From an uncultured Sphingorhabdus sp. (lineage in GTDB: Bacteria; Pseudomonadota; Alphaproteobacteria; Sphingomonadales; Sphingomonadaceae): DNA of 64,000 nucleotides. Below the pieces are notes generated by a model. That model searched no databases, was not told the origin of the DNA, and worked only from the letters and a program-made list of their open reading frames with translations. A program made the translations under genes and the position numbers. The stretch spans positions 1,280,578 through 1,344,577 of the forward strand of contig CANLOL010000001.1 of NCBI GenBank assembly GCA_947492905.1. The letters run 5' to 3'. Positions 17,514 through 38,309 of the stretch are shown here, in pieces (the first letter of the stretch is position 1; every line of letters starts with the position of its first letter).

Positions 17514-17589
17514 GCCGCTTTAGCTCAGGTGGTAGAGCACATCATTCGTAATGATGGGGTCAGAGGTTCGAGTCCTCTAAGCGGCACCA
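17514..17589 (+). tRNA. tRNA-Thr (anticodon CGT)
   Basis: 76-nt cloverleaf. The acceptor stem GCCGCTT pairs with AAGCGGC, followed by the discriminator A and an encoded CCA (17587-17589). The D arm is GCTC/GAGC. The anticodon stem CATCA/TGATG encloses loop TTCGTAA with anticodon CGT at 17547-17549. The T arm is AGAGG TTCGAGT CCTCT. A possible promoter, TTGAAA (17459-17464) and TATCTG (17481-17486), lies upstream. The 3' half is the attachment site of the downstream island. Confidence 0.97.
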
Positions 17590-17756: not shown

Positions 17757-18944
17757 ATGGCATTAACAGATTTGAAGATAAAGAGCGCGAAGCACGGTGC
17801 AAAGCCAATTAAGCTATTTGATGATCGTGGCTTGTTCCTATTATTGCAGCCAAGCGGGGGCAAGTTATGGCGGCTTAAATATCGCATATTGGGAAAAGAG
17901 AAGAAATTATCCCTTGGTGTCTATCCTGATGTTTCATTGAAAGAGGCCCGCAAGAGGCGCGATGATGCTAGAACATTGCTAGCCAATGGCGTTGATCCGT
18001 CAAATGCAAAGAAAGAGCGAGAGCAATCTGAGAAGCGAGATGCTGCCAATACTTTCGCAGCAATAGCAGATGAATTTATTGAGAAAACATCAAGAGAAGG
18101 CAGGGCAGCAGTCACCATCAAGAAAACACAATGGCTATTATCTCTCATGAAGGTTGATATCGGTAGTCGCCCTATCAAAGAAATTACGCCAGCAGAATTA
18201 CTCACTTGTTTGCAGAAAGTGGAATCTAAGGGAAATTTGGAAACTGCGCGCAGGATGCGATCATTTGCGGGACGCGTATTTCGATATGCAGTTGCAACAT
18301 CAAGGGCAGATTCTGATCCATCTGCATTATTGCGCGGTGCATTAGTGGCCCCCACTGTAAAACATCATAGTGCTATTTTGGAACCGAAAGCAGTTGGGGA
18401 GTTATTAAGAGCGATAGATGGATATTCTGGACAGCCTTTGACATGTCTTGCTCTAAAATTAACTCCACATTTATTTGTTCGTCCCGGTGAATTAAGGCGC
18501 GCAGAATGGCAAGAGTTTGACCTTGAAAAAGCGATATGGACGATACCAGCCGAGAAAATGAAAATGCGCGATCCGCATGTCGTTCCTCTATCAAAGCAAT
18601 CGCTTGAATTATTGGATATTGTCAAATCCATTAGTGCAGGGCAGCAATATATATTTTCATCGCTCTATCCGGGCAATCGCCCTATGTCAGAAAACACCAT
18701 AAATGCTGCGCTTCGGCGGATGGGTTATTCAGGAAAAGAAATGACGGCTCATGGCTTTCGCTCTATGGCTAGCACGCTTTTAAATGAGAGCAGTAAGTGG
18801 AATCCAGATGCTATTGAAAAAGCATTGGCGCATAAGGATGGCAATTCTATTCGCGCAGCCTATCATCGCGGCACTCATTGGAACGAGCGCGTTGAAATGG
18901 CACAATGGTGGAGTGATTATTTGGATGGGCTGAGAAGAAGTTAA
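17757..18944 (+). CDS. P4-type tyrosine integrase
   Basis: Site-specific recombinase of 395 residues that integrates the island in tRNA-Thr. The N-terminal DUF4102-type arm-binding domain is clear (MALTDLKIKSAK... GLFLLLQPSGGKLWRLKYRI, SLGVYPDVSLKEARKRRDDA). A SAM-like core-binding domain spans about residues 100-185, and the catalytic domain follows. Catalytic residues seen are Arg in RPGELRRAEW, a Lys in the beta-hairpin after WTIPAEKMKMRDPHVVPL, HGFRSM (H-x-x-R), the late His/Lys box LAHKDGNSIR and Tyr in AAYHRGTHWNERVEM. The gene lies 168 bp from the tRNA, the standard arrangement. Confidence 0.95.
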   Translation: MALTDLKIKSAKHGAKPIKLFDDRGLFLLLQPSGGKLWRLKYRILGKEKKLSLGVYPDVSLKEARKRRDDARTLLANGVDPSNAKKEREQSEKRDAANTFAAIADEFIEKTSREGRAAVTIKKTQWLLSLMKVDIGSRPIKEITPAELLTCLQKVESKGNLETARRMRSFAGRVFRYAVATSRADSDPSALLRGALVAPTVKHHSAILEPKAVGELLRAIDGYSGQPLTCLALKLTPHLFVRPGELRRAEWQEFDLEKAIWTIPAEKMKMRDPHVVPLSKQSLELLDIVKSISAGQQYIFSSLYPGNRPMSENTINAALRRMGYSGKEMTAHGFRSMASTLLNESSKWNPDAIEKALAHKDGNSIRAAYHRGTHWNERVEMAQWWSDYLDGLRRS

Positions 18945-19216: not shown

Positions 19217-20320
19217 ATGAACCCAAATTCCGAATCTACAGAAGATATTGAAGGTCATGAGACTAGTAGCTCAGAATTAAATTTAGGTGATTACCCTCTA
19301 GACGACGTAATGGTCCGTAGTGAGGTTCGTACAGTTGCCGAGACTGTGAAACGGATAGAATCGGGACGGTTCATGATGGACCCTGACTTTCAGAGAGATT
19401 TTGTCTGGTCTACGGATAAACAATCGAAATTAATTGAGAGTTGCGTAATGCGCATTCCACTTCCTGTTTTTTATGTCGCTGAACTTATTGATGGCAAAGT
19501 TGCTGTTGTCGATGGATTGCAGAGATTAAGTTCTTTTAGGTATTTTCTGTCTGATAAACATAAGCTTACGGGATTAGGGAAAAACCATCCTTTACTTGGT
19601 AAAAAGTTTTCTGAATTACCCCTTAACCTGCAAGAACGGATTGAAGATACTCAAATAACATTATATATTTTAGATAAAAATGCACCAGATAGAGCGCGCT
19701 TAGATATATTTGAACGCGTTAATAGTGGTGAAGTTCTATCTCGACAACAAATGCGCAATGCTATTTACAATGGCCCTGGTACAAGATGGTTAGCAGATAT
19801 GGCAGACAATATAAATTTTAAAACTGCTACAGGTGGATCTTTAAATCCCAAAACTATGCGCGATCGTGAAGCAATTAATCGATTTGCAGCGTTTCACCTT
19901 TTAGGATTTAAATCCTACACTAAGGGGGATATGGATGAATTTCTTGCAGAAGCTCTGCGCCAAATGAATAAGATGGATAATGAGAAACTAGAACAAATGA
20001 AGAGAGATTTCATTGGTTCTATGAAGATAAATAAAGCAATCTTTGGCAAGCATGCATTCAGAAAATCACTGAGAGAGAATTCAAAAAATGCATCGAGAAC
20101 TACTCTAAATATTTCTTTATTCGATGTTATGTCCACTTGCTTTGCCCCATCTAAATTAAATCTAGACAACGAAAAATATAATCTAGTCCACAAAACTATG
20201 TCTGTTTTATTGAATGATTATGAGTTTGATGATGTCATATCGCGATCAACCAATAGCACAAGGCCGGTGCACACAAGGCATCAGATGATGTCAAATGCCC
20301 TGAAGGATTTTACCGAATGA
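19217..20320 (+). CDS. DUF262 (ParB/Sulfiredoxin-like) protein, first gene of a putative defence operon
   Basis: 367-residue DUF262 protein. The family belongs to the ParB-like nuclease/NTPase fold and forms the N-terminal half of GmrSD type IV restriction enzymes. Visible motifs are FMMDPDFQRDFVWSTDKQS, LIESCVMRIPLPVFYV and VVDGLQRLSSFRYFL (the DGxQR motif). A later FERVNSGEVLSRQQMRNAIY block is also family-typical. No DUF1524/HNH nuclease half follows within the protein, so it is not a complete GmrSD. A GGAAG ribosome site precedes the ATG. Its stop overlaps the ATG of the next gene by 4 bp (ATGA), indicating translational coupling with the ATPase. Confidence 0.85.
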   Translation: MNPNSESTEDIEGHETSSSELNLGDYPLDDVMVRSEVRTVAETVKRIESGRFMMDPDFQRDFVWSTDKQSKLIESCVMRIPLPVFYVAELIDGKVAVVDGLQRLSSFRYFLSDKHKLTGLGKNHPLLGKKFSELPLNLQERIEDTQITLYILDKNAPDRARLDIFERVNSGEVLSRQQMRNAIYNGPGTRWLADMADNINFKTATGGSLNPKTMRDREAINRFAAFHLLGFKSYTKGDMDEFLAEALRQMNKMDNEKLEQMKRDFIGSMKINKAIFGKHAFRKSLRENSKNASRTTLNISLFDVMSTCFAPSKLNLDNEKYNLVHKTMSVLLNDYEFDDVISRSTNSTRPVHTRHQMMSNALKDFTE

Positions 20321-21462
20321 GTATTACATCCATTGAATTAGAAAACTTTAAATGTTTCGAAGTGCTAACTCTACCAACGAGACCATTAACGATATTAACA
20401 GGGTATAATGCTGCAGGAAAATCAAGCCTTTTGCAATCGGTTTTACTTTTTTCACAACAACTCAGAAGTAATAATGATGATGGCTACTTTTCATTAAATG
20501 GAAAGATGGCTAATCTTGGCAATGCGGGCGATGTGTTTTGCAAGCATTCTAAATCTAAGACAAGAAGTCTAAACATAGCATTTGAGAGTGAGTCCGAAAG
20601 GGCGGCAATTCAACTAAGTTCTCAAGACGCGCCCCGAGGCAAACTTATATTCGAAAATTTAAAGTTAGAATGTGATGGCGAAGTAATAACGGTAATTCAA
20701 AACCTGAATGAGACTTCAAAAGAGAATGCAAGCCCTCTGATCAAATCTATTAAAGAATGTGTATTCGTAGGCTTAATCCGTCAAAGTCAATCTCAAACCT
20801 TTCCTATGCCTCATGACAGTTCAGACAAAATTTGGGATGTTGGCAGAGATGGTCAATATGCGCCTTATATATTAGATATACGCTCTACGGATATAGTAGA
20901 TCCCGAAAGACGGCATCCAGACGAAACTAGCGAAACTGTCCAAGGGCAGTGTGATGCTTGGCTAAATGAGCTTTTCCCTAAGGCGCGGGTTAACTCCACA
21001 GTTATCAGATCAACCGATTTATTAAAGCTTGAGTTTCAAAACAGTAAATCAAGTGGTTGGGTACGACCAGACAATATAGGGTACGGGCTGAGTTATGCAT
21101 TTCCACTAATTGTAGCATTAATGACTGCGCCTAAGGGGGGAATAATAATCATTGATAGCCCCGAAGCCCATCTTCATCCTAGGGCACAATCTAAGATTGG
21201 TCAGATGATCTCCAAAATTGCAGCCTCTGGAGTGCAAATTTTTGTTGAAACCCATAGCGACCATTTCCTCAATGGAATACGAATAGCCACGAAAGATGAA
21301 AAAATTCCTGCTCATGATGTTCAAATTTATTTTTTTGGAACTGACACAGATGCTACAGGTATTGAATCTATAAATATAGATAAACAAGGTAATATGAGTC
21401 ATTGGCCCGAAGGCTTTTTTGATCAGAGTGAACATGATCTATTTAAGCTTGCTGGGTGCTAA
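20317..21462 (+). CDS. AAA ATPase with DUF3696-type C-terminus (OLD/RecF-like)
   Basis: 381-residue ABC-type ATPase of the RecF/OLD-like group. The order is an N-terminal SIELENFKCFEVLTL, Walker A GYNAAGKSSLLQS (about residues 29-41), a signature-like region near NIGYGLSYAFPLIVAL, Walker B GGIIIIDSPEAHLHPRAQSK, and the H-loop in FVETHSDHFLNGIRIA. It ends with the DUF3696 mark WPEGFFDQSEHDLFKLAG. No TOPRIM or HNH nuclease domain is present. Middle gene of a tight three-gene operon: 4-bp overlap with the DUF262 gene and 3 bp to the next. ATPases of this class power many anti-phage systems with separate effectors. Confidence 0.88.
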   Translation: MSITSIELENFKCFEVLTLPTRPLTILTGYNAAGKSSLLQSVLLFSQQLRSNNDDGYFSLNGKMANLGNAGDVFCKHSKSKTRSLNIAFESESERAAIQLSSQDAPRGKLIFENLKLECDGEVITVIQNLNETSKENASPLIKSIKECVFVGLIRQSQSQTFPMPHDSSDKIWDVGRDGQYAPYILDIRSTDIVDPERRHPDETSETVQGQCDAWLNELFPKARVNSTVIRSTDLLKLEFQNSKSSGWVRPDNIGYGLSYAFPLIVALMTAPKGGIIIIDSPEAHLHPRAQSKIGQMISKIAASGVQIFVETHSDHFLNGIRIATKDEKIPAHDVQIYFFGTDTDATGIESINIDKQGNMSHWPEGFFDQSEHDLFKLAGC

Positions 21463-21465
21463 AAA

Positions 21466-22431
21466 ATGCGCGCCTTCTTAAACGAGTTAGCACTATCTGA
21501 AGCTTGCAGAGCCTCTTCTCAGAAGCAACAGCCACTTATTGACTTGCTATCTTTAAGAGCAAAGCATCCTGAAATTCGGAACTCATTATATTGCTCCAAA
21601 GAGCTACGAGCTTATCAGATTGATGGCACCCTAGACATAGACACACTGATTAGACTGTTACCTCGAGATAATAAGCTTAGTTTTCTGCACTGGATGACAA
21701 GCAAGGGCCCATTTTTTGATGATGATCGATTAGCCGATCCAGAAACCGATTTATATAATCACAGCAATTCTGACGTAACTCGCCTTGGTTTAGGAGAAGC
21801 AGCCGCTAGGACGGTAAATCAAGGCAACAGCTGCGTATTTAGCCCTACCACACAAAAAACAATCAATAATCAGGCCACGCCATTGAAGGTACAGAAAATA
21901 AGCAATTCTGAACCAGAAACCTTCATTAATGTATTGAACTACTGGATTACTGAAAAGTTAATAGAATATATTGTGCTATCTAAGCCAGAGGCTAAATCGT
22001 GGACAGATTTGATTCATCAAGTAGATGAGAACTTTCCAAATCTATTAATTGGCAATGAATGCTTTAATTCTCTCAAACGTACTCCTTATAACTCGGTGAT
22101 TTCGAGAGCTATATTGAATAGACTTCATATATTGAATGAAATTGCAAAAGATAGAGATACTTCTGGCAAGCTTTTAACAAGAGCAAACGAACTTTATGAA
22201 CTACATTTTACGGGAAAAGATCCGCTTTTCAGTGATGAGTCTGATGGCAATAAAACTAAATTTAGAAACGCAATGACTTTTCCTGATCCAACAGGGGGTG
22301 GAAAAGTAATTTATTTTTGGCACGGGAAGATAAAACAACAGCAACAACGTATCCATTTTGAGTGGCCGATCCCAAAAGGCGCAAAACGAATAAAAGTTGC
22401 ATACATAGGACCTAAAATTTCTAGGCGTTAG
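21466..22431 (+). CDS. Protein of unknown family, third gene of the DUF262/ATPase operon (candidate effector)
   Basis: 321 residues, no assigned family. The N-terminal two-thirds are mostly helical and hydrophilic. The C-terminus (about residues 245-321) is distinctive: FTGKDPLFSDESDGNKTKF, MTFPDPTGGGKVIYFWHGKI, then RIHFEWPIPKGAKRIKVAYI followed by GPKISRR. The alternating hydrophobic pattern and conserved-looking His, Lys and Arg (HGKI, RIHF, GPKI) suggest a small beta-rich catalytic or nucleic-acid-binding domain. It starts 3 bp after the ATPase stop, so it is certainly co-transcribed. Being the only member without a recognisable domain, it is the likeliest effector or specificity factor. 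That role is inference. Confidence 0.7.
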   Translation: MRAFLNELALSEACRASSQKQQPLIDLLSLRAKHPEIRNSLYCSKELRAYQIDGTLDIDTLIRLLPRDNKLSFLHWMTSKGPFFDDDRLADPETDLYNHSNSDVTRLGLGEAAARTVNQGNSCVFSPTTQKTINNQATPLKVQKISNSEPETFINVLNYWITEKLIEYIVLSKPEAKSWTDLIHQVDENFPNLLIGNECFNSLKRTPYNSVISRAILNRLHILNEIAKDRDTSGKLLTRANELYELHFTGKDPLFSDESDGNKTKFRNAMTFPDPTGGGKVIYFWHGKIKQQQQRIHFEWPIPKGAKRIKVAYIGPKISRR

Positions 22432-22690: not shown

Positions 22691-24232
22691 TTGCTGACAG
22701 GTGAAATACGGAATCAAGTTGATCAAATATGGAATGCATTTTGGTCTGGGGGCGTATCAAACCCATTATCTGTGATCGAGCAAATCACTTATTTGCTATT
22801 TATCAAGCGTCTTGATGATTTACATACATTAGAAGAAAATAAGGCTACGACCCTTGGCAGCCCAATGGAACGCCAAATATTTCCTGAAGGCAATGACGAT
22901 CAGGGGAGGCCATATTCTGATATGCGCTGGTCTCGCTTCAAGAACTTTGAAGCGCGCGAAATGATGGATGTCGTCGCCGATAGAGTATTCCCATTCCTGA
23001 GGGGGCTTGGCGAAGAGGGCTCAAGCTTCGGCGAGCACATGAAGGATGCGCGGCTCGGTTTCAGCAACGCAGCGCTTCTCGCAAAAACCGTCGACATGCT
23101 CGACAAAATCCCGATGGATGATCGCGACACCAAGGGCGATCTTTATGAATATATGCTAGGCAAGATTGCCAGCGCGGGCACCAACGGACAATTCCGCACG
23201 CCGCGTCACATCATTCAGCTGATGGTCGAAATGACCCAGCCTACCCCCAGCGATGTGATTTGCGACCCAGCACTGGGCACGGCGGGCTTTCTTGTGGCAG
23301 CGGGCGAATATCTTCGCGATAACCACCCCCAGGCATTGCGGGATGAGAAGTTGCGCCAGCACTTCCATGGCGGCATGTTCCATGGCTTTGACTTTGACCC
23401 AACCATGCTGCGCATCGGCAGCATGAATATGACCCTGCACGGCGTTGATAATCCCAATATCACCTATCGCGACAGTCTGGCTGAAGAGCATGGCAGTGAT
23501 GCAGGCAAATACAGCCTGATCCTTGCCAATCCGCCTTTTGCCGGATCGCTCGATTACGAGACGACCGCCAAAGACCTTCAGCAAATCGTCAAAACGAAGA
23601 AGACCGAATTGCTGTTCCTTGCTTTGTTCTTGCGCTTGCTGAAAACCGGCGGGCGCGCAGCGGTGGTTGTGCCCGATGGCGTGTTGTTCGGATCATCGAA
23701 AGCGCACCAGGAATTGCGCAAACTATTGGTCGAAAAACACAAGCTTGAAGGCGTTTTGAAACTGCCTTCCGGTGTGTTCAAACCCTATGCCGGCGTGTCC
23801 ACCGCGATCCTGTTCTTCACCAAGACGGGCGTGGGCGGGACAGAGAATGTCTGGTTCTATGATCTACAGGCCGATGGCTACTCGCTCGATGACAAGCGCA
23901 ACGCGCTGCTTGATCCGGACAAGCTTGGATCGCTTCCAGCCGCGCAGCCGAGCGAGGAGGACCACGCCAAGAACAATCTGCCCGATGCGCTGACCCGTTG
24001 GCTGGACCGTGAAGGCGGCGAGATCGAAAACCCGCGCACGGCGCAAAGCTATTGCGTTTCAAAGGAAGATATCGCTGCCACCGGCACCTATGACCTCTCG
24101 CTCAATCGCTACAAGCTGGTCGAGCATGAAGAGGTGACGCACGACAAGCCTGCCGACATCATCAAGGAACTGCGCATGCTGGAGCAGGAAATCGGCGATG
24201 GCCTCACCAAGCTGGAGGCGATGCTGGGATGA
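22691..24232 (+). CDS. hsdM: Type I restriction-modification system, methyltransferase subunit
   Basis: N6-adenine DNA methyltransferase subunit (513 residues). The N-terminal HsdM_N helical domain is seen in IRNQVDQIWNAFWSGGVSNP and LIKRLDD-like text; the SAM-binding motif I is DPALGTAGFLVAAGEY and the catalytic motif IV is NPPFAG. VVVPDGVLFGSSKAHQELRK is also typical. The start is TTG: it gives the family N-terminus MLTGEIRNQ and has AGGGG about 8 bp upstream. GC content rises sharply inside this gene compared with the preceding operon, indicating a different donor. The stop overlaps hsdS by 4 bp. Confidence 0.96.
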   Translation: MLTGEIRNQVDQIWNAFWSGGVSNPLSVIEQITYLLFIKRLDDLHTLEENKATTLGSPMERQIFPEGNDDQGRPYSDMRWSRFKNFEAREMMDVVADRVFPFLRGLGEEGSSFGEHMKDARLGFSNAALLAKTVDMLDKIPMDDRDTKGDLYEYMLGKIASAGTNGQFRTPRHIIQLMVEMTQPTPSDVICDPALGTAGFLVAAGEYLRDNHPQALRDEKLRQHFHGGMFHGFDFDPTMLRIGSMNMTLHGVDNPNITYRDSLAEEHGSDAGKYSLILANPPFAGSLDYETTAKDLQQIVKTKKTELLFLALFLRLLKTGGRAAVVVPDGVLFGSSKAHQELRKLLVEKHKLEGVLKLPSGVFKPYAGVSTAILFFTKTGVGGTENVWFYDLQADGYSLDDKRNALLDPDKLGSLPAAQPSEEDHAKNNLPDALTRWLDREGGEIENPRTAQSYCVSKEDIAATGTYDLSLNRYKLVEHEEVTHDKPADIIKELRMLEQEIGDGLTKLEAMLG

Positions 24233-25362
24233 GTTGGCAATCAGTGAAGCTAAAGGAAGTAGCGTCCATCGAGAGGAATGGCATTGGGCCGGATGCTATT
24301 ACCTCCGGCACTCAATACCTCGGGTTGGAGCATATCGAGTCAGGAGGCAAAATTCTCGGAGCCGAAACTGTTAAAGCAGGTGATCTTGCTAGTACGAAGT
24401 TTCGCTTTAGCAATTGCCATGTACTATTCGGAAAACTGCGGCCCTACTTGGCAAAAATTGCCAAGCCTGACTTCGAAGGCATTTGTAGCACTGACATCGT
24501 GCCAATCATGCCCGGACCAGACCTAGATCGATCATTTTTGACCCACTTCTTGCGGCAGCCAAGCATGGTTGAATTCGCCAATTCGCAATCAACAGGCGCA
24601 AATCTCCCGCGATTAAGTCCCAAGGCCCTTGCAGAATTTGAACTTCCGCTACCTCCTCTCAACGAGCAGAAGCGGATTGCGGCGATCCTTGATCAGGCGG
24701 ACGAGCTGCGCCGCAAGCGCCAGCGCGCCATCGACCGCCTCAACCAACTCGGCCAAGCCATCTTTCATGATATGTTTGGCGATCCGGCGACGAACCCCAG
24801 AGGTTTCGAAGCATTGCCGCTGGGTGATGCGGTCGAGTTTATTGGCGGATCGCAACCTGCTAAATCTTATTTCTTGCATGAGGATGGACCAGATCGCGTC
24901 CGTTTCGTGCAAATTCGAGATTTTCGCTCAGATAAGTATCAGACATGGGTGCCGAAATCGCTAGCAAAGCGCCCTTTTACGGAGGACGATGTGATGATTG
25001 GTAGGTACGGGCCACCAGTCTTTCAAATTTTCAAAGGACTGTCTGGAACATACAACGTTGCATTGATGAAGGCGAAGCCGAAGCTGAATCTGACCTCGGA
25101 CTTCGTTTTCTATCTTCTCCAAGAGCCAAGATTGCATTCATTCGTTGTGGCCAATTCAGAACGGACTGCCGGGCAGTCAGGGGTCAATCTGGACCTGCTT
25201 GAAAAATATCCGGCATATGCGCCACCGGCCGACTTACTGCGCGAATTTTCTGATCGCATCGCTGATGTTGACAACCAAGTTCGCGCCTACCGAGAAGCAA
25301 AAATGGCAGCGGAGCGTCTGTTCGCTTCCCTCCAACACCGCGCCTTTGAAGGGGAGTTGTAA
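24229..25362 (+). CDS. hsdS: Type I restriction-modification system, specificity subunit
   Basis: Determines the bipartite DNA target of the complex. The 377 residues contain two target-recognition domains. TRD1 (about 1-140) ends in the conserved FELPLPPLNEQKRIAAILDQ followed by the helical spacer ADELRRKRQRAIDRLNQLGQ. TRD2 (about 190-335) is followed by a second spacer starting near DLLREFSDRIADVDNQ and ending in RLFASLQHRAFEGEL. TRD1 DNA is visibly lower in GC than the spacer, the usual sign of TRD shuffling. The gene overlaps hsdM by 4 bp and is followed after 2 bp by a non-RM gene. Confidence 0.95.
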   Translation: MSWQSVKLKEVASIERNGIGPDAITSGTQYLGLEHIESGGKILGAETVKAGDLASTKFRFSNCHVLFGKLRPYLAKIAKPDFEGICSTDIVPIMPGPDLDRSFLTHFLRQPSMVEFANSQSTGANLPRLSPKALAEFELPLPPLNEQKRIAAILDQADELRRKRQRAIDRLNQLGQAIFHDMFGDPATNPRGFEALPLGDAVEFIGGSQPAKSYFLHEDGPDRVRFVQIRDFRSDKYQTWVPKSLAKRPFTEDDVMIGRYGPPVFQIFKGLSGTYNVALMKAKPKLNLTSDFVFYLLQEPRLHSFVVANSERTAGQSGVNLDLLEKYPAYAPPADLLREFSDRIADVDNQVRAYREAKMAAERLFASLQHRAFEGEL

Positions 25363-25364
25363 TT

Positions 25365-26309
25365 ATGCGCGGCGAACTCCTGAATGTGTGGGGCAAAGTT
25401 TGGTCAGAGGTTTTAGTGAAGCTCTCTAAGCATAAGGATGCTCCAACCGAACTCTTTTCGGAGCTATATCAAGCCATCATCCCTGCTCCAATGATGCCGG
25501 CGGAGCCAGATGAGCCGACGCAATATGATGAATATGGTCAGTTAACAGACCCTAATGAGATCGCAGCAGAGGAAGTTTACAAAACAGCAATTGAAAACTT
25601 CAACACGGCGCGCTCCCATTATGAACAAGCCGTCTCGGGAAGCACTAAAGCGCGCCAATGGTTACGTACCGAAATGCCTCTGTACATCACTAGTGAGGCC
25701 AAAGCCCTGCAAACCTTGGAAGCCGTTCACGCAAAAGTTCGTGACATCAGCGGCGACGAACTGACCAATCGCTATTTCAAACTTGTTGAAGCATTTATCG
25801 ACAAATATAGTTTGCGCTATGATCTGCGCAGACCATTTTCAATGCATCCAACCTTGCCCGGTATTTTTGCCCGCATGGTGCTCAATCTCAAAGCTGCATC
25901 ACAAAGCGATGCTCACCTCTCTAGCGCGTTTCATGAGTTTGAAGATGCCTTACGTGATCTGACGGCGGAGCAAACACCAACCAGGATCAAGACCTGTATC
26001 GCCAAGCAAACAAATTTTTTAGAAGCGATTGGCCAAATTGCTCCGAATGTGACTGGCAACACACTTGGTCAGATTTGCGATCAAGTCGGCACTTGGCCAC
26101 ATGATCGTATTAAAGACTCCATGAAAAATATGTACGGCTTCGCATCGAACTATCCAGGAATAAGGCATGGTGGCACAGCGGCGAATCAAATTCGCGAGAT
26201 TGAGATGCGTGATCTCGTCTCCGTTTGCATCGTACTTTTTGGGTTCGCGCCGTATCTAACGGATCAAATCAATTTAGAAGATATTTATACAATTGAGGAG
26301 GTCGTATGA
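25365..26309 (+). CDS. Abortive-infection-like accessory protein within the type I RM operon
   Basis: 314-residue protein, no firm family. The N-terminal half is helical with a Pro/Glu-rich stretch (PAPMMPAEPDEPTQYDEYGQ). The C-terminal region has MYGFASNYPGIRHGGTAANQ and EIEMRDLVSVCIVLFGFAPY, which resembles the C-terminal domain of abortive-infection (Abi_C-type) proteins and RM-associated HEPN-like proteins. A canonical R-x4-6-H HEPN motif is not present (R and H are adjacent). It sits 2 bp after hsdS and overlaps the next gene by 4 bp, so it is translated with the RM system and may act as a back-up suicide module. The role is inferred from context. Confidence 0.6.
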   Translation: MRGELLNVWGKVWSEVLVKLSKHKDAPTELFSELYQAIIPAPMMPAEPDEPTQYDEYGQLTDPNEIAAEEVYKTAIENFNTARSHYEQAVSGSTKARQWLRTEMPLYITSEAKALQTLEAVHAKVRDISGDELTNRYFKLVEAFIDKYSLRYDLRRPFSMHPTLPGIFARMVLNLKAASQSDAHLSSAFHEFEDALRDLTAEQTPTRIKTCIAKQTNFLEAIGQIAPNVTGNTLGQICDQVGTWPHDRIKDSMKNMYGFASNYPGIRHGGTAANQIREIEMRDLVSVCIVLFGFAPYLTDQINLEDIYTIEEVV

Positions 26310-26827
26310 CTTTATCAGCCGCGCAGATGCATACTATGACAATGCCTGGTCCCATGCTTAAGCGCGGTTTTTGGCTCTATGTTTGGCGCGTAACTGCACC
26401 AGAAGGTGAGAAGCTCTATGTCGGTCGCACTGGCGATAATTCAAGTCCTAATGCTGCCGCACCTTATACAAGAATGGGTCAGCATCTTGGTTTTTCAAAG
26501 GCACAAAATTCACTTCGTCGCCTTTTGATGGAACAATCAATTCATCCTGAAGAATGTGATAGTTATGAGTTAATTACTTATGGACCAATTTTTCCAGAAG
26601 TTAGCAAAAGTAAAAAATTGGATCGGAATCAACTCATGGAACTTCATACTCCATCGCGAAATGCTGTAGGGGCATTGGAGAGAAAACTAGCTAATGAATT
26701 AAAAGCTGCCGGCTATGATGTTCTTAATATAGTAAAATGGAAGCATCCATATAACGAAAAATTATGGCATAAAGTAGTTGATGAATTTGCAGTTCATTTT
26801 CCTAAGCTTAAGGAGCTAAATAAATGA
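26306..26827 (+). CDS. GIY-YIG-like nuclease domain protein within the RM operon
   Basis: 173-residue protein with a GIY-YIG-type core: FWLYVWRVTAPEGEKLYVGR matches the paired strands (LYVW ... LYVGRTG), with the candidate catalytic Arg in GRTGD and a downstream Glu in ALERKLANELKAAG. YTRMGQHLGF follows the second strand, as in GIY-YIG proteins. Its DNA is much more AT-rich than hsdS or hsdR on either side, so it was inserted separately. It overlaps its neighbours by 4 bp at each end (ATGA), so the insertion preserved translational coupling. It could be an additional nuclease effector or a phage-DNA-targeting accessory. Confidence 0.65.
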   Translation: MTLSAAQMHTMTMPGPMLKRGFWLYVWRVTAPEGEKLYVGRTGDNSSPNAAAPYTRMGQHLGFSKAQNSLRRLLMEQSIHPEECDSYELITYGPIFPEVSKSKKLDRNQLMELHTPSRNAVGALERKLANELKAAGYDVLNIVKWKHPYNEKLWHKVVDEFAVHFPKLKELNK

Positions 26828-29800
26828 ACCAATTCGCCTTCCTCGAAGCTGAATTTGCCAAGGTCTATGAACTGGCTCGAAAGGCCGAAACATCGGCTCT
26901 GTCCGATCCACGCGGGAGCTGTTTTCATGCGCGCTTGGCTTTGGAAAGTGCGGTCAAATGGATGTATGCGAATGACCGCAATCTGCGCTCACCCTATGAT
27001 ACGGCTCTGTCCGCGCTGATCCATGAAGGCACATTCCGCGCACTGGTTGGCAATGCGCTGGTCACCAAGGCGCGGATCATTAAAGATTTGGGCAATGTGG
27101 CAGTCCATGAAACCCGCCCTGTGCCAGAGAAGGCTGCGACTGATAGCCTGAAGCAGCTCTTCGATTTCTGTTATTGGTTGGTGCGCACCTATGCGCGGGG
27201 TGCCAAGCCCGATCCTGCCGTGGCCTTCTCCATAACTGCGCTTCCTCGTGCAGTGCAAGTCGAAGCCTCCACCTTGGCCAAGCTTCAAGCGATGGCCAAA
27301 GAGCGCGAGGATACCGCCAAGGCTTTGGCCGATGAACAGGCCGCGCGGATCAAGAGCGAGGAAGACCGCGTCGCCCTCGATGCGCATATCAAAACACTTC
27401 AAGCCGAGATTGAGGCGATCAAGGCCAAGAATGCCAAGGTCGAGGATACGCATGATTATAGCGAGGCAGAGACCCGCGACATCTGGATCGATCGCCTACT
27501 GGCCGAGGCTGGCTGGCCGCTAGATCAGGAGCGTGACCGGGAATACCCAGTACAAGGTATGCCCAACCAGTCCAAGCAGGGCTTTGTCGACTATGTGCTG
27601 TGGGATGATGACGGCAAGCCGCTCGCCGTGATCGAGGCCAAGCGGACCAAGCGTGACGCGCGCGTAGGGCAACAGCAGGCCAAGCTTTATGCCGATTGCC
27701 TAGAGAAGCAGTTCGGTGTGCGCCCGCTGATCTTTTACACCAACGGCTATGAGCATTGGCTGTGGGATGATGCGGCCTATCCGCCGCGTCAGGTGCATGG
27801 TTTTCTTAACAAAGACGAGCTGGAGCTGTGGCGTCAGCGCAAGGCTGCGCGGCGGTCATTATCTACCACGAAAATTGATGAGGACATTGCAGGGCGCTAC
27901 TATCAAACCCGCGCTATTCGTAGGGTGGGCGAGGTTTTTGAGAAAGACAGGCAGCGCAAAGCCCTGTTGGTTATGGCGACTGGTTCGGGGAAAACCAGAA
28001 CGGTTATTGCACTGATTGATCAGATGATGCGCGCCAATTGGTGCAAGCGCGTGCTGTTTTTAGCGGACCGCGTGGCGCTGGTGAGACAGGCCCATAATGC
28101 CTTTAAAGCGCATATTCCCAACACGCCGAGCGCCAACCTGATTGAGCGACACGATAGCAATAATAATGATCACAATGGCGCGCGTGTTTGTGTTGCCACC
28201 TATCCCACGATGATGGGACTGATTGATGAAATGCAGAACGGTCAAAAGCGTTACGGGCCGGGACATTTTGATCTCATCGTTATCGATGAGGCGCACCGCT
28301 CTGTTTACCGGAAATACCGCTCGATTTTTGACTATTTCGACAGCATGCTTGTAGGCCTGACTGCAACGCCCCGCGATGAAATCGACCGTGACACATATTC
28401 ATTGTTCGAACTGGAGCGAGGCGTACCTACCGATAACTATGATCTCGAAAAGGCTGTAGATGATGGGTTCCTTGTGCCGCCGACGCCGATATCAGTGCCG
28501 ACGCGCTTCATGCGTGAGGGGATCAAATATGATCAGCTCTCCGACGTGGACAAGGAAAAGTGGGATCTGCTCGAATGGGAAGGGCAGTTGCCAAAGGGCG
28601 ATGTTGATCCGGCGGCGCTTAACAAATGGCTGTTCAATGAAGACACCGTCGACAAGGTTCTCGAGCATTTGATGGTGAACGGCCTTAAGGTTGCCGAGGG
28701 TGACCGTTTGGGTAAGACCATCATCTTTGCCAAGAACCACAAGCATGCTCAATTCATCGCGGATCGCTTTGATGCAAATTATCCGCACCTCAAAGGGTCA
28801 TTCGCTCGATTGATCGATTATTCTGTTGAATATCCGCAATCGTTGATAGATGACTTCTCTATACCCGAAAAGCCGCCACACATTGCCATTTCGGTAGACA
28901 TGCTCGATACAGGCATCGATGTGCCTGAGGTTCTCAACCTCGTTTTCTTCAAGGTTGTCCGCTCAAAAACAAAATTTTGGCAAATGATTGGTCGCGGTAC
29001 GCGCCTTAGCGAGGGCCTGTTCGGCCCAGGACGCGACAAGAGGGAATTCCTGATCTTCGACTATTGCCAGAATTTTGAATTCTTCAACCAGAACCCCAAC
29101 TTGAAAGATGGGAAGCCAACGGCTTCATTGACCGAAAAATTGTTTGCATCGAGGGTCGAGCTCATCGGGCATATAGGAGCGATGTCGAAGGAAGAACGGG
29201 GCGAAGCCCTGGCCAACCTCGACGGTGATACCCGCAAGCGCCTGTTCGAAGAGGTCAATGGGATGAGCCTTGACAATTTCCTTGTCCGCGCGAAACGCCA
29301 ACAGGTCGAAAGCTTTCAGGATCGCGCAAGCTGGAACGACATCGGTCTTGACGAGAGAGAGACGCTGATCAACGAAATTGCCGGTCTGCCATCAGCTTTT
29401 GAAGACACAGATATTGCTGCCAAGCAATTCGACTACATCGTTTTAAGGGGCCAGCTGGCCTTGCTTCAGAACGATGTGTCCTTTGCCCAATGTCAGGAGA
29501 AGATCATCGCGCTTGCCTCCAAGCTCGAAGAGCTCGGTAACGTCCCAATGGTTGCCGCTCAGATGGCGCTGCTTCTTGAAGTCCAGACACAAGAATATTG
29601 GACTGAAATTGACGTCTGGACGCTGGAGCAAATGCGCCGCCGCCTTCGTTCGCTCATGAAGCTCATCGAGGGCGATGAAGCTGTCATCATTTACACGGAT
29701 TTCGAGGATGAGCTCGGGGACGCTACGCGCATCGAGTTGCCCGATGCGGGCGTTGGAACTGATAAGGCGCGGTTCCAAATGAAGGTCCGCCACTTCCTTA

Positions 29801-30228
29801 ACGCTCATGCCGATCACATCACGATCCAGAAACTGCATCGCAACGAGCAGCTGACCCCGCAAGATATAGCGGAGCTTGAACGCATACTGCGAGAAGAGAC
29901 CGAAGCCAGCGACGACGATATCGCTGCGATCACGAGCGAGGGCGGGTTGGGTCTGTTTATTCGTTCGCTAATCGGCCTTGATCGCGATGCCGCGAAAGAC
30001 GCTTTTGCGGAGATGCTTGCAGGCCAGAACTTAACCGCAAACCAGATTGAGTTTATCAATCTTGTGACCGATTATCTGACTGAGCGTGGCGCGATGGACC
30101 CACGCCGACTGTACGAAAGCCCATTTACCGATCTTGATGATCAAGGAATCAGCGGCTTGTTCCCACAAACGGAAGTGCAGCGGATAGTCCAAGTTCTAAA
30201 AGAAGTTAGTGGGAGGGCCGCTGCGTGA
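26824..30228 (+). CDS. hsdR: Type I restriction-modification system, restriction/translocase subunit (EcoEI-type)
   Basis: ATP-driven DNA translocase and endonuclease of 1134 residues. Domains in order: an N-terminal DUF4145 HEPN-like domain (about 5-130, with IIKDLGNVAVHETRP), a coiled coil (about 150-210), an HSDR_N nuclease core (about 215-330, with GFVDYVLWDDDGKPLAVIEA and KRTKRD, the D...ExK site), SF2 helicase motif I MATGSGKTRTV, motif II DEAH, motif III GLTATPRDE, motif V DMLDTGIDVPEV, motif VI QMIGRGTR, and an EcoEI_R_C-type C-terminus. The frame is intact and all catalytic motifs are present, so the restriction system looks functional. Confidence 0.96.
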   Translation: MNQFAFLEAEFAKVYELARKAETSALSDPRGSCFHARLALESAVKWMYANDRNLRSPYDTALSALIHEGTFRALVGNALVTKARIIKDLGNVAVHETRPVPEKAATDSLKQLFDFCYWLVRTYARGAKPDPAVAFSITALPRAVQVEASTLAKLQAMAKEREDTAKALADEQAARIKSEEDRVALDAHIKTLQAEIEAIKAKNAKVEDTHDYSEAETRDIWIDRLLAEAGWPLDQERDREYPVQGMPNQSKQGFVDYVLWDDDGKPLAVIEAKRTKRDARVGQQQAKLYADCLEKQFGVRPLIFYTNGYEHWLWDDAAYPPRQVHGFLNKDELELWRQRKAARRSLSTTKIDEDIAGRYYQTRAIRRVGEVFEKDRQRKALLVMATGSGKTRTVIALIDQMMRANWCKRVLFLADRVALVRQAHNAFKAHIPNTPSANLIERHDSNNNDHNGARVCVATYPTMMGLIDEMQNGQKRYGPGHFDLIVIDEAHRSVYRKYRSIFDYFDSMLVGLTATPRDEIDRDTYSLFELERGVPTDNYDLEKAVDDGFLVPPTPISVPTRFMREGIKYDQLSDVDKEKWDLLEWEGQLPKGDVDPAALNKWLFNEDTVDKVLEHLMVNGLKVAEGDRLGKTIIFAKNHKHAQFIADRFDANYPHLKGSFARLIDYSVEYPQSLIDDFSIPEKPPHIAISVDMLDTGIDVPEVLNLVFFKVVRSKTKFWQMIGRGTRLSEGLFGPGRDKREFLIFDYCQNFEFFNQNPNLKDGKPTASLTEKLFASRVELIGHIGAMSKEERGEALANLDGDTRKRLFEEVNGMSLDNFLVRAKRQQVESFQDRASWNDIGLDERETLINEIAGLPSAFEDTDIAAKQFDYIVLRGQLALLQNDVSFAQCQEKIIALASKLEELGNVPMVAAQMALLLEVQTQEYWTEIDVWTLEQMRRRLRSLMKLIEGDEAVIIYTDFEDELGDATRIELPDAGVGTDKARFQMKVRHFLNAHADHITIQKLHRNEQLTPQDIAELERILREETEASDDDIAAITSEGGLGLFIRSLIGLDRDAAKDAFAEMLAGQNLTANQIEFINLVTDYLTERGAMDPRRLYESPFTDLDDQGISGLFPQTEVQRIVQVLKEVSGRAAA

Positions 30229-32942: not shown

Positions 32943-33533
32943 TTACCGCGAATGAATAATATTATCAGCGCAGGCTCGCCATAGAATTAAGTCAACCGTA
33001 GCGGCACGGTAACTTGTTACCTTGGCGAGCCTGTCACATAGCTCTTGTGCATCTAAACCTTCCTTTTCTGCCAATCGGTTTAGGTGCACATCGGGTTTGG
33101 CAACATCAGCGCCTAAGTTTTTGGCTAAATGAAATTTTGTTATCGGTCCGATCCAGGGTAAGGAGGCACAAAACTCGATTAAATCATTAGTTTGGTGATA
33201 TTGGCTTAGCAATTGCTTTCGTTCTTTCCATATCAGATCAATTGCTCTTGATTTGCCGGGATGTCCGAACACTGTTGTTACTGACTGGCCATTATTTAGC
33301 GCAAGTATACATTTTTCAAATATAGGCACTGCAATGCGATTACTCATCCCTGAATTACATATCACATAGATCGCTTCACCAGCAAATTCTTTAGCTGTTC
33401 TAGGAGGAGTAATGTTTTCGGACCATTCAATTGCCGCTTTGTAACCAGCCTTCCTTACGGCTTTGTCTATTTTCTTAAATTGTTGTTTCGTTATTGGAAA
33501 TTTTAACTCGATTAAAGGTGGTTTCCTAGCCAT
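32943..33533 (-). CDS. HhH-GPD-like DNA glycosylase fold protein
   Basis: 196 residues. The C-terminal part, LPWIGPITKFHLAKNLGADV followed by AKPDVHLNRLAEKEG, is the helix-hairpin-helix plus Pro/Asp loop of the HhH-GPD base-excision glycosylase superfamily (KPDVHL is seen in EndoIII/AlkA-like enzymes). The Asp in PDVHL sits where the catalytic Asp is expected. No Fe-S cysteines follow. A glycosylase could repair or attack modified phage DNA; no substrate can be named. The ATG at 33533 overlaps the stop of the DUF3768 gene by one base, so the two form a coupled pair. The 158 bp upstream of its stop (32785-32942) contain nothing recognised. Confidence 0.65.
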   Translation of the reverse strand: MARKPPLIELKFPITKQQFKKIDKAVRKAGYKAAIEWSENITPPRTAKEFAGEAIYVICNSGMSNRIAVPIFEKCILALNNGQSVTTVFGHPGKSRAIDLIWKERKQLLSQYHQTNDLIEFCASLPWIGPITKFHLAKNLGADVAKPDVHLNRLAEKEGLDAQELCDRLAKVTSYRAATVDLILWRACADNIIHSR

Positions 33534-33886
33534 CAATATTCAGCCGCTAGCATGATAGTTAAATATCTGATCGTTACATCAGGATCGCTAGGATCGGGGG
33601 AGGCGTATTGTTGATTGTTGTTATAATAATCAATCTTCCAAAAAATATTTTGACCTTGTATATTTATTACACCAAAATCATGTTCCTTATGTGGATCATT
33701 ATCATCTGTAAAATCATCAAACTCTGCAACGGCTTTTATGATATTTAAATAAGTGGGATGCCCTAGAGCAACTATTCCATCTGTAATGCAAAAATATCCT
33801 CCCACTCTATATTTCCTGAATTGATCATTTAAATCTCTAATTCGTTGCTTGTACTCGGCGCAGCACTCCTTTTCATGAGTATTCAT
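33533..33886 (-). CDS. DUF3768 family protein
   Basis: 117 residues matching the DUF3768 pattern common on alphaproteobacterial plasmids and islands: LNDQFRKYRVGGYFCITDGI near the N-terminus, EFDDFTDDNDPHKEHDFGVI in the middle and WKIDYYNNNQQYASPDPSDP followed by IRYLTIMLAAEY at the end. Function unknown. It is translationally coupled to the glycosylase-like gene (TGATG overlap), so the two may act together. Confidence 0.85.
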   Translation of the reverse strand: MNTHEKECCAEYKQRIRDLNDQFRKYRVGGYFCITDGIVALGHPTYLNIIKAVAEFDDFTDDNDPHKEHDFGVINIQGQNIFWKIDYYNNNQQYASPDPSDPDVTIRYLTIMLAAEY

Positions 33887-33933: not shown

Positions 33934-34515
33934 TCAGATTAAGCTAATAAGTTTGCGCTGCGCATCCCGGTCGCCTTCTATATATCGCTCAGTAGTAGTT
34001 AAGGCGCGGTGACCAGCAAGTTCTTGCACATCCCGCAGTGATCCACCTGTTTTGCTTATAATTCTTGCAGATTGTGTTATAAATGTGCGCCGCCCTGAAT
34101 GCGATGAGCAACCACGTAGTTCCAAACTGGCATAAGCGTCGTGGAACCAATTAACGATACTTCTAGGAGTCATGTGTCCGCCACGTTCCGACAATATCGT
34201 TGGGCCTTCTTGTGGACGTCCTATAGTTAGATGATAGTCAGCTAGAGCCTTAAGAAGGTCTGCATGCATTGGAATATGTCTACCGCTTCCATATTTGGCT
34301 ATGTGTTTACTGATCTGTATATGGTCCGCTATATGTCCATCTGTTTTTAAAAGCATTTGCCATGTGAGTCCGGCAATTTCACAAGCCCTAAGACCTGCTT
34401 TGAAGCTGAGTAATATAATAACTGTATTTCGTTGCTGATGTCTATGGTTTTTGGTGTGTGATAATAACCGGCACACATCTGTTGCCTCCAGCACCCTCGC
34501 AGGTTGCCTGTCCAT
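33934..34515 (-). CDS. Short tyrosine recombinase (catalytic domain only)
   Basis: 193-residue phage-integrase-family protein. Catalytic residues seen: Arg in KAGLRACEIAGLTW, Lys near ISKHIAKYGSGRHIPM, HSGRR (H-x-x-R), the late His in ELAGHRALTTT and Tyr in TERYIEGD. There is no arm-binding or core-binding N-terminal domain, and the protein begins almost directly at the catalytic fold. It may be a resolvase-like enzyme or a truncated survivor of another element. ATG at 34515 is chosen because GGAG lies 6 bp upstream; an upstream ATG at 34527 overlaps that site. DUF3768 starts 47 bp downstream. Confidence 0.85.
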   Translation of the reverse strand: MDRQPARVLEATDVCRLLSHTKNHRHQQRNTVIILLSFKAGLRACEIAGLTWQMLLKTDGHIADHIQISKHIAKYGSGRHIPMHADLLKALADYHLTIGRPQEGPTILSERGGHMTPRSIVNWFHDAYASLELRGCSSHSGRRTFITQSARIISKTGGSLRDVQELAGHRALTTTERYIEGDRDAQRKLISLI

Positions 34516-34659
34516 AATATTCTCCATTTCATATGTTTAGTTTAGCGTTGCTGTTGCAGCCGCTAATGCATAATAGCAAAAATCAATAAATTGATAAAGA
34601 AAAATGAATTATAACAATAATTTAAGAAGATTATGTGTTAGCAAAGCAGTTTTGGATTA

Positions 34660-35966: not shown

Positions 35967-38309
35967 ATGATTAAAAAAATTAATATTGCAAATTTTGGTT
36001 GTTTTAATGACTTTGAATGGGGTGTATCGCTAAGAGATGCTGGAAATAATGTCGTAGAGCTAAAGAAAATAAACATTATTTATGGTTGGAATTACTCTGG
36101 TAAAACCACTCTTTCTAAAATTTTTCGTAGCTTAGAAGAAAAAAGATTACCCAATAATTATAATCACCCTGAATTTACGATAACGACCGACGAGGTCGAT
36201 ATAAAACAAAACGAGGTTGATAAAAATTCATTGAGCGTAAGAGTATATAATTCTGACTTTATTAGAGAAAATCTTAGTTTTTTATATGATTCCGATAATG
36301 GATTGCTCAAACCTTTTGCATTAATTGGAAGTACAAATAATCAGAATGAAACAAAAATAAATGAAATAGAGCAAGAATTAGGCAGCTTAGAATCTGAGAG
36401 TGGCTTGCGCTTTAGAGAACATTCCCGTCTTGAAGCTCAAGCTAGTATAATTGATAATTATAATTCATCTAAAAGAAGCCTTGATAATAAATTGATAGGT
36501 TGTGCTAAACAAATAAAATTAAATAAAAAATTAGAAGATGTGAATTATAATATTGCTAAAATTCGAAATGATATTCAAAAAATTTTGAATAATGGCTCTG
36601 AAAATTTTATTTTAGGTAATGAACCTTCGATAGAGGCTCTGTTAAAAGAAGAGCCCTTAACAGATATAAATGTTACTTTACCTGATATTCAAAATATGGG
36701 TGTGTTGTTCTCAAAAGTCAATAATGTCCTAAATAGGAAATTAGAGCCAACTCAACCAATTCAAAAACTATTAAATGATTCTATATTGCAAACTTGGGTT
36801 AGGCAAGGAATGAACATTCATTCTCCAAACTCAGAAGAATGCGAATTTTGCGGTAATAATATCCCAGCAGATTTGTGGGCTAGATTGAGTGGCCATTTTA
36901 ATAATGCAACACTTGAAATGGAATCAGAAATTGAGACTATAATTTCCCAAATTATAAGAGAAAAAAATAAATTAAGTAACTTACCTATTGATCCGTCTCT
37001 ATTTTATTCAGAGTATAAGGAAAAATATCAACAGATAGTAAATGAATATAATAAGTATGTACTAGAATATAAAAAATATTTGGATGAGTTGATTGAAGCT
37101 TTAAATAAGAAGAAATCAGAGGTTTACAATGTAATCACCGTTCCTAAATATAACCAATCTTATGAGAAATTAAATAAGGCGAGCGAGAACTTTAGTTCAA
37201 TAATTAATGAGAATAATAGCAGAACTAGAACTCTTCATAGTGATCAAGTTAAGGCAAGAAATAACCTTCGACTTTCGATAGTTGCAAAATTCCTAAAGCA
37301 AATAAATTATGATGAAGAGATAAAAAATATTGATAGAATAGAAAAATTAAAGGCAAAAGCCATTGAAGAGACTAGAAAAGTTCGTGACCAAATTGAAAGC
37401 CACGAGAACGTTCTGAAAAGATTTAAATCGGAATTAAAGAGTGAAACTATTGCAGCTCAGAGTATAAACGATTATTTAAATCATTATTTTGGACATAACA
37501 AACTTGAGTTAAAATTATCTGCAGATGAATCTAATGATGAGATTAATTATAAATTCGAAATCTACAGAGGTGATGAACCAGCGCATAATCTCAGTGAAGG
37601 AGAGAGTAGCTTAATTTCTTTCTGTTACTTTATTACAAAGCTAAAAGAGCTTGAAGAAGATTATCAGAATGCCATTATTTATATTGATGATCCTATCTCA
37701 AGCTTGGATAATAATCATATATATTTTATATATAGTTTAATAGAGTCAGAAATTGCAAAGCCTGAGAATTATAAACAATTGATAATATCTACTCACAATA
37801 TTGAATTTCTTAAATATACAAAAAGATTAACGAAACCAGACAATAATTCGGCTTATTTTATCATTGAAAATAATGGGGATAAGAGCCTGATTAAAACTAT
37901 GCCAAAACACTTAAAGAAATACGCTACTGAGTTTAATTATCTATTTAATCAAATATATGATTGTAAGGATGCAGAAAATCGTGAAGCAAAGTCTAGTAGC
38001 TTTTATAGTTTTGGTAACAGTATGCGAAAATTTCTTGAAGCTTATTTATATTTTAAATATCCCAGTGGAATTCCCATGAATGATAAAATTAAACTTTTTT
38101 TTGGTGGTGATTGTGTTTCAACAACATTAACCCAGCGTGTTACAAATGAATATTCGCATCTCGAAAATATGTTTGATCGTGGAATGGAACCTATTGACAT
38201 CATTCAAATTACAAAATTAGCCAATTTCATTTTAGATAAAATGTTCGAAAATGATAAAGAACAATATAATGCTTTGCTATTGAGCATTGGCGAACCCCTG
38301 CGCGAATAA
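35967..38309 (+). CDS. RloC/PrrC-like AAA ATPase with zinc-hook CxxC and C-terminal HEPN motif
   Basis: 780-residue protein of the AAA_13 group, which includes the anticodon nucleases PrrC and RloC. Walker A is GWNYSGKTTLS (about 40-50). A long coiled coil with Cys292-x-x-Cys295 (EECEFCGNN) recalls the RloC zinc hook. The ABC signature LSEGESSLISF (about 540), Walker B IIYIDDPISSLD (about 570) and H-loop ISTHNIEFLKY follow. The C-terminal domain has R724-x6-H731 (RVTNEYSH), the HEPN RNase motif. It is shorter than RloC and lacks the exact PrrC triad, so tRNA cleavage is a prediction. DNA is strikingly AT-rich, and it stands alone outside attR. Confidence 0.82.
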   Translation: MIKKINIANFGCFNDFEWGVSLRDAGNNVVELKKINIIYGWNYSGKTTLSKIFRSLEEKRLPNNYNHPEFTITTDEVDIKQNEVDKNSLSVRVYNSDFIRENLSFLYDSDNGLLKPFALIGSTNNQNETKINEIEQELGSLESESGLRFREHSRLEAQASIIDNYNSSKRSLDNKLIGCAKQIKLNKKLEDVNYNIAKIRNDIQKILNNGSENFILGNEPSIEALLKEEPLTDINVTLPDIQNMGVLFSKVNNVLNRKLEPTQPIQKLLNDSILQTWVRQGMNIHSPNSEECEFCGNNIPADLWARLSGHFNNATLEMESEIETIISQIIREKNKLSNLPIDPSLFYSEYKEKYQQIVNEYNKYVLEYKKYLDELIEALNKKKSEVYNVITVPKYNQSYEKLNKASENFSSIINENNSRTRTLHSDQVKARNNLRLSIVAKFLKQINYDEEIKNIDRIEKLKAKAIEETRKVRDQIESHENVLKRFKSELKSETIAAQSINDYLNHYFGHNKLELKLSADESNDEINYKFEIYRGDEPAHNLSEGESSLISFCYFITKLKELEEDYQNAIIYIDDPISSLDNNHIYFIYSLIESEIAKPENYKQLIISTHNIEFLKYTKRLTKPDNNSAYFIIENNGDKSLIKTMPKHLKKYATEFNYLFNQIYDCKDAENREAKSSSFYSFGNSMRKFLEAYLYFKYPSGIPMNDKIKLFFGGDCVSTTLTQRVTNEYSHLENMFDRGMEPIDIIQITKLANFILDKMFENDKEQYNALLLSIGEPLRE

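What the first reader, a model, noticed from the sequence alone, without database searches (positions are those of the whole stretch)
19217..22431. Tight three-gene operon DUF262 / DUF3696-type AAA ATPase / unknown protein
The genes overlap by 4 bp and are 3 bp apart, inside an integrative island next to a type I RM system. DUF262 is the GmrSD-type sensor half, but no DUF1524/HNH half is present; the ATPase has no nuclease domain. The third protein must therefore supply or complete the activity. I know of no named defence system with exactly this trio, so it is a candidate undescribed anti-phage system. Novelty is inferred, not searched.
Basis: partly seen in the sequence, partly recalled or inferred. 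Interest (0 to 1): 0.82.

Follow-up and report, generated by a model that had tools for sequence, protein, structure and literature searches.

The report
Menshen anti-phage system, already described
The three genes are an ordinary copy of Menshen, a bacterial anti-phage defence system already in print and in the databases; a predicted structure adds the hint that its third protein, whose role was open here, carries a fold typical of bacterial toxins that cut messenger RNA.

The parts
19217..20320 (+). NsnA: DUF262/GmrSD_N protein of Menshen, 367 aa
   Evidence: PADLOC NsnA PDLC03877 2.5e-116, residues 9-366 on profile 22-383 of 385; Pfam GmrSD_N 2e-21
19508..19525 (+). VDGLQR motif of the DUF262 nucleotide pocket
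   Evidence: D99, G100 and R103 invariant in 12 of 12 aligned NsnA proteins; role of the motif from PMC10952713 passages on other DUF262 proteins
20317..21462 (+). NsnB: ABC/OLD-like ATPase with C-terminal DUF3696, 381 aa, no TOPRIM domain found
   Evidence: PADLOC NsnB PDLC03878 2e-105; AAA_15, AAA_21, DUF3696
20401..20424 (+). Walker A GYNAAGKS of NsnB
   Evidence: G29, N31, G34, K35, S36 invariant in 14 of 14
21142..21180 (+). Walker B region IIIIDSPEAHLHP of NsnB
   Evidence: P282, E283, H285, L286, H287, P288 invariant in 14 of 14
21466..22431 (+). NsnC: third Menshen protein, 321 aa, proposed effector
   Evidence: PADLOC NsnC PDLC03896 3.6e-90, residues 1-320 on profile 1-318 of 319
22033..22428 (+). 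C-terminal domain of NsnC with predicted RelE/ParE-superfamily fold (about residues 190-321)
22321..22350 (+). HGK...R conserved cluster (H286, G287, K288, R295) of the NsnC C-terminal domain
   Evidence: invariant in 11 of 11; HxK or HxR in 10 of 11 further NsnC proteins, read by eye
17514..17589 (+). tRNA-Thr (CGT), probable insertion site of the element
   Evidence: ARAGORN
17757..18944 (+). tyrosine integrase
   Evidence: Pfam Phage_integrase 6.6e-20, Arm-DNA-bind_3, Phage_int_M

Best explanation
The trio is a Menshen anti-phage system (NsnA-NsnB-NsnC; this part alone about 0.96 likely) on a tRNA-Thr-linked element. Proposed working (the confidence below is for this): NsnA, with the DUF262 (ParB-like) nucleotide pocket, and NsnB, an ABC/OLD-type ATPase, form the sensor and switch that responds to phage DNA or a phage-made change. 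NsnC is the effector: its last ~130 residues have a predicted RelE/ParE-superfamily fold with a conserved HxK...R...K cluster where such toxins keep basic catalytic residues (recalled), so once released or activated it probably cuts mRNA (RelE-like) or blocks another host process and stops phage growth by arresting the cell. Shown here: identity of the three genes by profile, conservation of the trio and of the motifs, the predicted fold. Inferred: sensor and effector roles, the RNA target, cell arrest.
Confidence: 0.5

Rival explanations
1. Menshen in which NsnB is the DNA nuclease (OLD-like), NsnA regulates it by nucleotide turnover, and NsnC is an accessory or targeting protein.
For: [quoted passage not shown] NsnB hits OLD-type ATPases, mainly over the P-loop and Walker B parts.
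Against: The NsnB of this window is 381 aa: ATPase plus DUF3696, with no TOPRIM or other nuclease hit at E up to 1; PADLOC's NsnB profile has 345 positions, too short, as I infer, for an ATPase plus TOPRIM.
Confidence: 0.2
2. Menshen in which NsnC acts as a ParE-like gyrase poison or binds DNA or a partner through the RelE/ParE-type fold without being a ribonuclease.
Confidence: 0.2
3. An undescribed system.
For: Pfam, NCBIfam and PHROGs give no credible name to the third protein.
Against: All three proteins are full-length matches to the PADLOC NsnA, NsnB and NsnC profiles.
Confidence: 0.02

Closest known systems
Menshen (NsnA, NsnB, NsnC; Millman et al. 2022, original paper not held; seen through PMC10952713 passages and PADLOC; the gene names are tied to Menshen from memory)
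   Same: All three genes, the order A-B-C, lengths close to the profiles (367 aa on 385 positions, 381 on 345, 321 on 319), and the NsnC subgroup already has its own model, PDLC03896.
   Different: No difference that would set it apart was found. The review speaks of an OLD nuclease and a TOPRIM component; no TOPRIM is detected here.
GmrSD, BrxU and SspE (DUF262 with DUF1524)
   Same: DUF262/GmrSD_N domain with the DGxQR motif in gene 1.
   Different: No DUF1524/HNH hit in any of the three proteins.
PD-T4-2, HEC-03 and PDC-M55 (other systems with a DUF262 protein or a related ATPase)
   Same: NsnA hits PD-T4-2_A at 116 bits; NsnB hits HEC-03B at 128 and PDC-M55A at 118 bits.
   Different: These scores are about a third of those for NsnA and NsnB, and an NsnC gene is present.
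RelE/YafQ/YoeB/ParE toxin superfamily, including the effector Cami1
   Same: Predicted fold of NsnC residues about 190-321.
   Different: No sequence similarity detected; about 190 further residues on the N-terminal side; NsnA and NsnB stand beside it instead of a small antitoxin gene.

Membership tests
Menshen | NsnA: DUF262 protein matching the NsnA profile over its length | tested here: met
   PDLC03877 2.5e-116, profile 22-383 of 385
Menshen | NsnB: AAA/ABC ATPase matching the NsnB profile | tested here: met
   PDLC03878 2e-105, profile 2-343 of 345
Menshen | NsnC matching one of the NsnC profiles | tested here: met
   PDLC03896 3.6e-90, profile 1-318 of 319
Menshen | three genes adjacent and on one strand | tested here: met
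   4-base overlap and 3-base gap
Menshen | protects against phages | not testable with these tools
   no phage assay; stated for Menshen in PMC10952713 passages
Menshen | OLD/TOPRIM nuclease component as stated in the review | tested here: inconclusive
   no TOPRIM hit in NsnB, but the PADLOC NsnB profile also looks too short to hold one, so this may not be a true defining feature
GmrSD type IV restriction | DUF1524/HNH nuclease half | tested here: not met
   no DUF1524 or HNH hit in the three proteins at E up to 1
RelE/ParE superfamily (NsnC C-terminal domain) | RelE-type fold | tested here: inconclusive
RelE/ParE superfamily (NsnC C-terminal domain) | sequence profile match | tested here: not met
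   no Pfam ParE_toxin hit at E up to 1; hhalign probability 1.7% at best, on small alignments
RelE/ParE superfamily (NsnC C-terminal domain) | ribosome-dependent mRNA cleavage or gyrase inhibition | not testable with these tools
   needs a bench assay

The most novel reading that the evidence does not exclude
Menshen senses phage DNA with a restriction-type module (DUF262 plus ABC ATPase) but strikes at RNA: NsnC is a RelE-fold ribonuclease held in check until NsnA and NsnB fire. In a subtype with a cytosine methyltransferase and an extended NsnA (L033, L034, L120) this would amount to a restriction-modification system whose 'restriction' arm cuts mRNA rather than DNA.
Probability: 0.25. Interest if true: 0.6.

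Novelty: already known. Interest (0 to 1): 0.22.

Why it matters
The locus itself is an ordinary copy of a named system, so it should be struck from a list of new candidates. What remains of use is a testable role for NsnC: if the RelE-type fold holds, the effector of Menshen is an RNA- or gyrase-directed toxin, which point mutants in a laboratory strain would settle quickly. The methyltransferase-linked relatives would give a direct handle on what NsnA senses.

Tried and rejected
Undescribed system: rejected by PADLOC. Third gene an unrelated neighbour: rejected, since the trio recurs in the same order. DUF1524/HNH half hidden in gene 3: no Pfam support. Sequence link of NsnC to RelE/ParE: tried by Pfam, by PDB sequence search and by hhalign of C-terminal alignments against 12 groups of ORFs from loci that match Pfam ParE_toxin; none supports it. 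Of those 12 groups I took one (6 sequences) as RelE-type by eye and the largest (22) as probably ParE, without checking; the others are neighbours or chance frames. Foldseek with the full model: no meaningful match. Phage records: no NsnC match in 50,697. Viral contigs: 33 pattern matches, none confirmed. First genome-contig scan with the window NsnC alone: 39 pattern matches, none confirmed. Second attachment site of the element: not found; an empty-site comparison was begun (with a match, mostly over the tRNA, in 41 of 41 genomes of the genus, own included) and not followed.

Rows dropped before counts: in the 398-genome search 12 genomes matched, own genome included. Of the 11 others, G005 (a 199-aa frame, no NsnA or NsnB found in 9 kb) does not show the trio, and G053 (NsnC pieces with stops) cannot show it because the contig begins 214 bases upstream; the other 9 show it. 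NsnA was seen only in part, or in the short locus only, for G018, G105 and G185. In one search L076 was left out of the wider alignment. In the plasmid search with the extended NsnA 677 records matched, the 40 listed rows all over the DUF262 half, and only nine were opened: seven have DUF262 and DUF3696 or AAA genes side by side, six of these with a further gene of 280-330 aa next behind (in L123 after 166 bases); for the seventh (L075) the record ends there; one (L122) has DUF262 with an N-6 methylase and a HEPN gene instead; one (L121) has no annotation.

Literature: searches. The original Menshen paper and Li et al. [quoted passage not shown] of the latter only the title in reference lists was seen. 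So no claim is made that the NsnC fold or the methyltransferase-linked form is unpublished. PMC10952713, PMC12839542, PMC10855318, PMC12926258 and PMC12704722 were seen as passages only.

Full report
What is there. The window has three tandem + strand genes at 19217-20320 (367 aa), 20317-21462 (381 aa) and 21466-22431 (321 aa). Genes 1 and 2 share 4 bases; genes 2 and 3 are 3 bases apart. They follow a tRNA-Thr at 17514-17589 and a tyrosine integrase at 17757-18944, and precede a type I restriction-modification operon at 22691-30228. G+C is 37-39% for the trio, against 54%, 52% and 54% for hsdM, hsdS and hsdR, so the trio and the RM operon probably have separate histories. The far end of the element was not found.

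What it is. PADLOC profiles name the three proteins without ambiguity: NsnA 2.5e-116, NsnB 2e-105, NsnC 3.6e-90, each over nearly the whole protein and profile. These are the three genes of Menshen. That NsnA, NsnB and NsnC are Menshen's gene names is recalled; no held paper that I found spells them out. It fits the review PMC10952713 (passages), which lists Menshen with DUF262 and a predicted OLD-type protein, without DUF1524, and says that mutation or deletion of the DUF262 gene abolishes resistance.

How specific is the match? At E up to 0.001 the NsnA profile also rings in 5 of 14 control genomes and in 13 of 61 relatives, several without an NsnB, so NsnA alone proves little. The NsnB profile at E up to 1e-25 rings in 1 of 14 controls and the NsnC profile at 0.001 in 0 of 14. 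The call rests on all three, their scores and their order.

Is the third gene part of it? Yes. NsnC relatives on plasmids of Crinalium, Cupriavidus and Gluconobacter (28-37% identity) sit behind a DUF262 and a DUF3696 gene in 3 of 3 cases. In 398 genomes drawn from the phylum, 12 match the NsnC profile, own genome included; 9 of the other 11 have NsnB, and NsnA or part of it, directly upstream. In two of these nine the NsnC matched only weakly and was confirmed by closer NsnC models (PDLC03879, PDLC03914). Of the two exceptions one is cut by a contig end (G053) and one (G005) has no NsnA or NsnB nearby. In 296 genomes of the order, 5 have an NsnB above 300 bits, own genome included, and 5 of 5 have the trio. 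No NsnC relative was found in 50,697 phage records.

Motifs. In 12 NsnA proteins D99, G100 and R103 of the VDGLQR motif are invariant. In 14 NsnB proteins the Walker A residues and the PE.HLHP Walker B stretch are invariant. In 11 NsnC proteins H286, G287, K288, R295, H297, W300, P301, Y313, G315 and K317 are invariant. In 11 further NsnC proteins, most of them of other subgroups, an HxK or HxR survives in 10 and the following R in 9, by eye. Nothing in the window's three genes looks degenerate.

Mechanism. NsnA and NsnB would sense the infection and spend nucleotide, and NsnC would act on RNA or another host target and stop the cell. The strongest rival is that NsnB is itself the nuclease, as the review's OLD/TOPRIM reading suggests, but no such domain is seen in this NsnB.

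A side finding. Two genomes of the same order (L033, L034) and one of another part of the phylum (L120) carry a variant in which a C5-cytosine methyltransferase gene lies directly upstream of an NsnA with an N-terminal extension of roughly 200-250 residues, followed by NsnB and an NsnC of the PDLC03915 group. The extension was found in 2 of 296 genomes of the order, 2 of 398 of the phylum (G303 is in both) and 0 of 385 of the class; the class sample held no known positive. In 3 of 3 loci found with it the methyltransferase is there. A methyltransferase beside the sensor suggests that this subtype, at least, tells self from non-self by DNA methylation. I did not find it described in the searches named, but the main recent paper on Menshen domains could not be read.

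Verdict. Observation confirmed, interpretation partly right, novelty claim refuted. Interest 0.22, nearly all of it from the NsnC fold and the methyltransferase-linked relatives.

Noticed in passing
L033 1213-6283, L034 4440-9679, L120 2310-7595: Menshen variant with a C5-cytosine methyltransferase gene directly upstream of an NsnA that has a roughly 200-250-residue N-terminal extension, then NsnB and a PDLC03915-type NsnC; an RM-like form of Menshen.
   Followed up: partly
window 35967-38309 (+): 780-aa AAA_13 protein, nearly full-length match to the candidate defence family PDC-S06 (2.3e-263) with a weaker PrrC match (8.1e-17); likely another defence gene of the same region.
   Followed up: partly
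window 25365-26309 and 26306-26827 (+): Two extra ORFs (314 aa, weak PDC-S32 match 7.7e-9; 173 aa, marginal GIY-YIG hit 0.035) between hsdS and hsdR of the type I RM operon, packed with a 2-base gap and 4-base overlaps.
   Followed up: no
window 32943-33536 (-) and 33934-34527 (-): OGG-like protein (PADLOC OGG 1.7e-32) and a 197-aa integrase-family ORF, shorter than the 395-aa integrase at 17757, a possible remnant of another element.
   Followed up: no
L122 1953-6178: Plasmid operon annotated as N-6 DNA methylase, unknown protein, DUF262 protein and HEPN-domain protein, another pairing of DUF262 with a methylase and a possible RNase.
   Followed up: no
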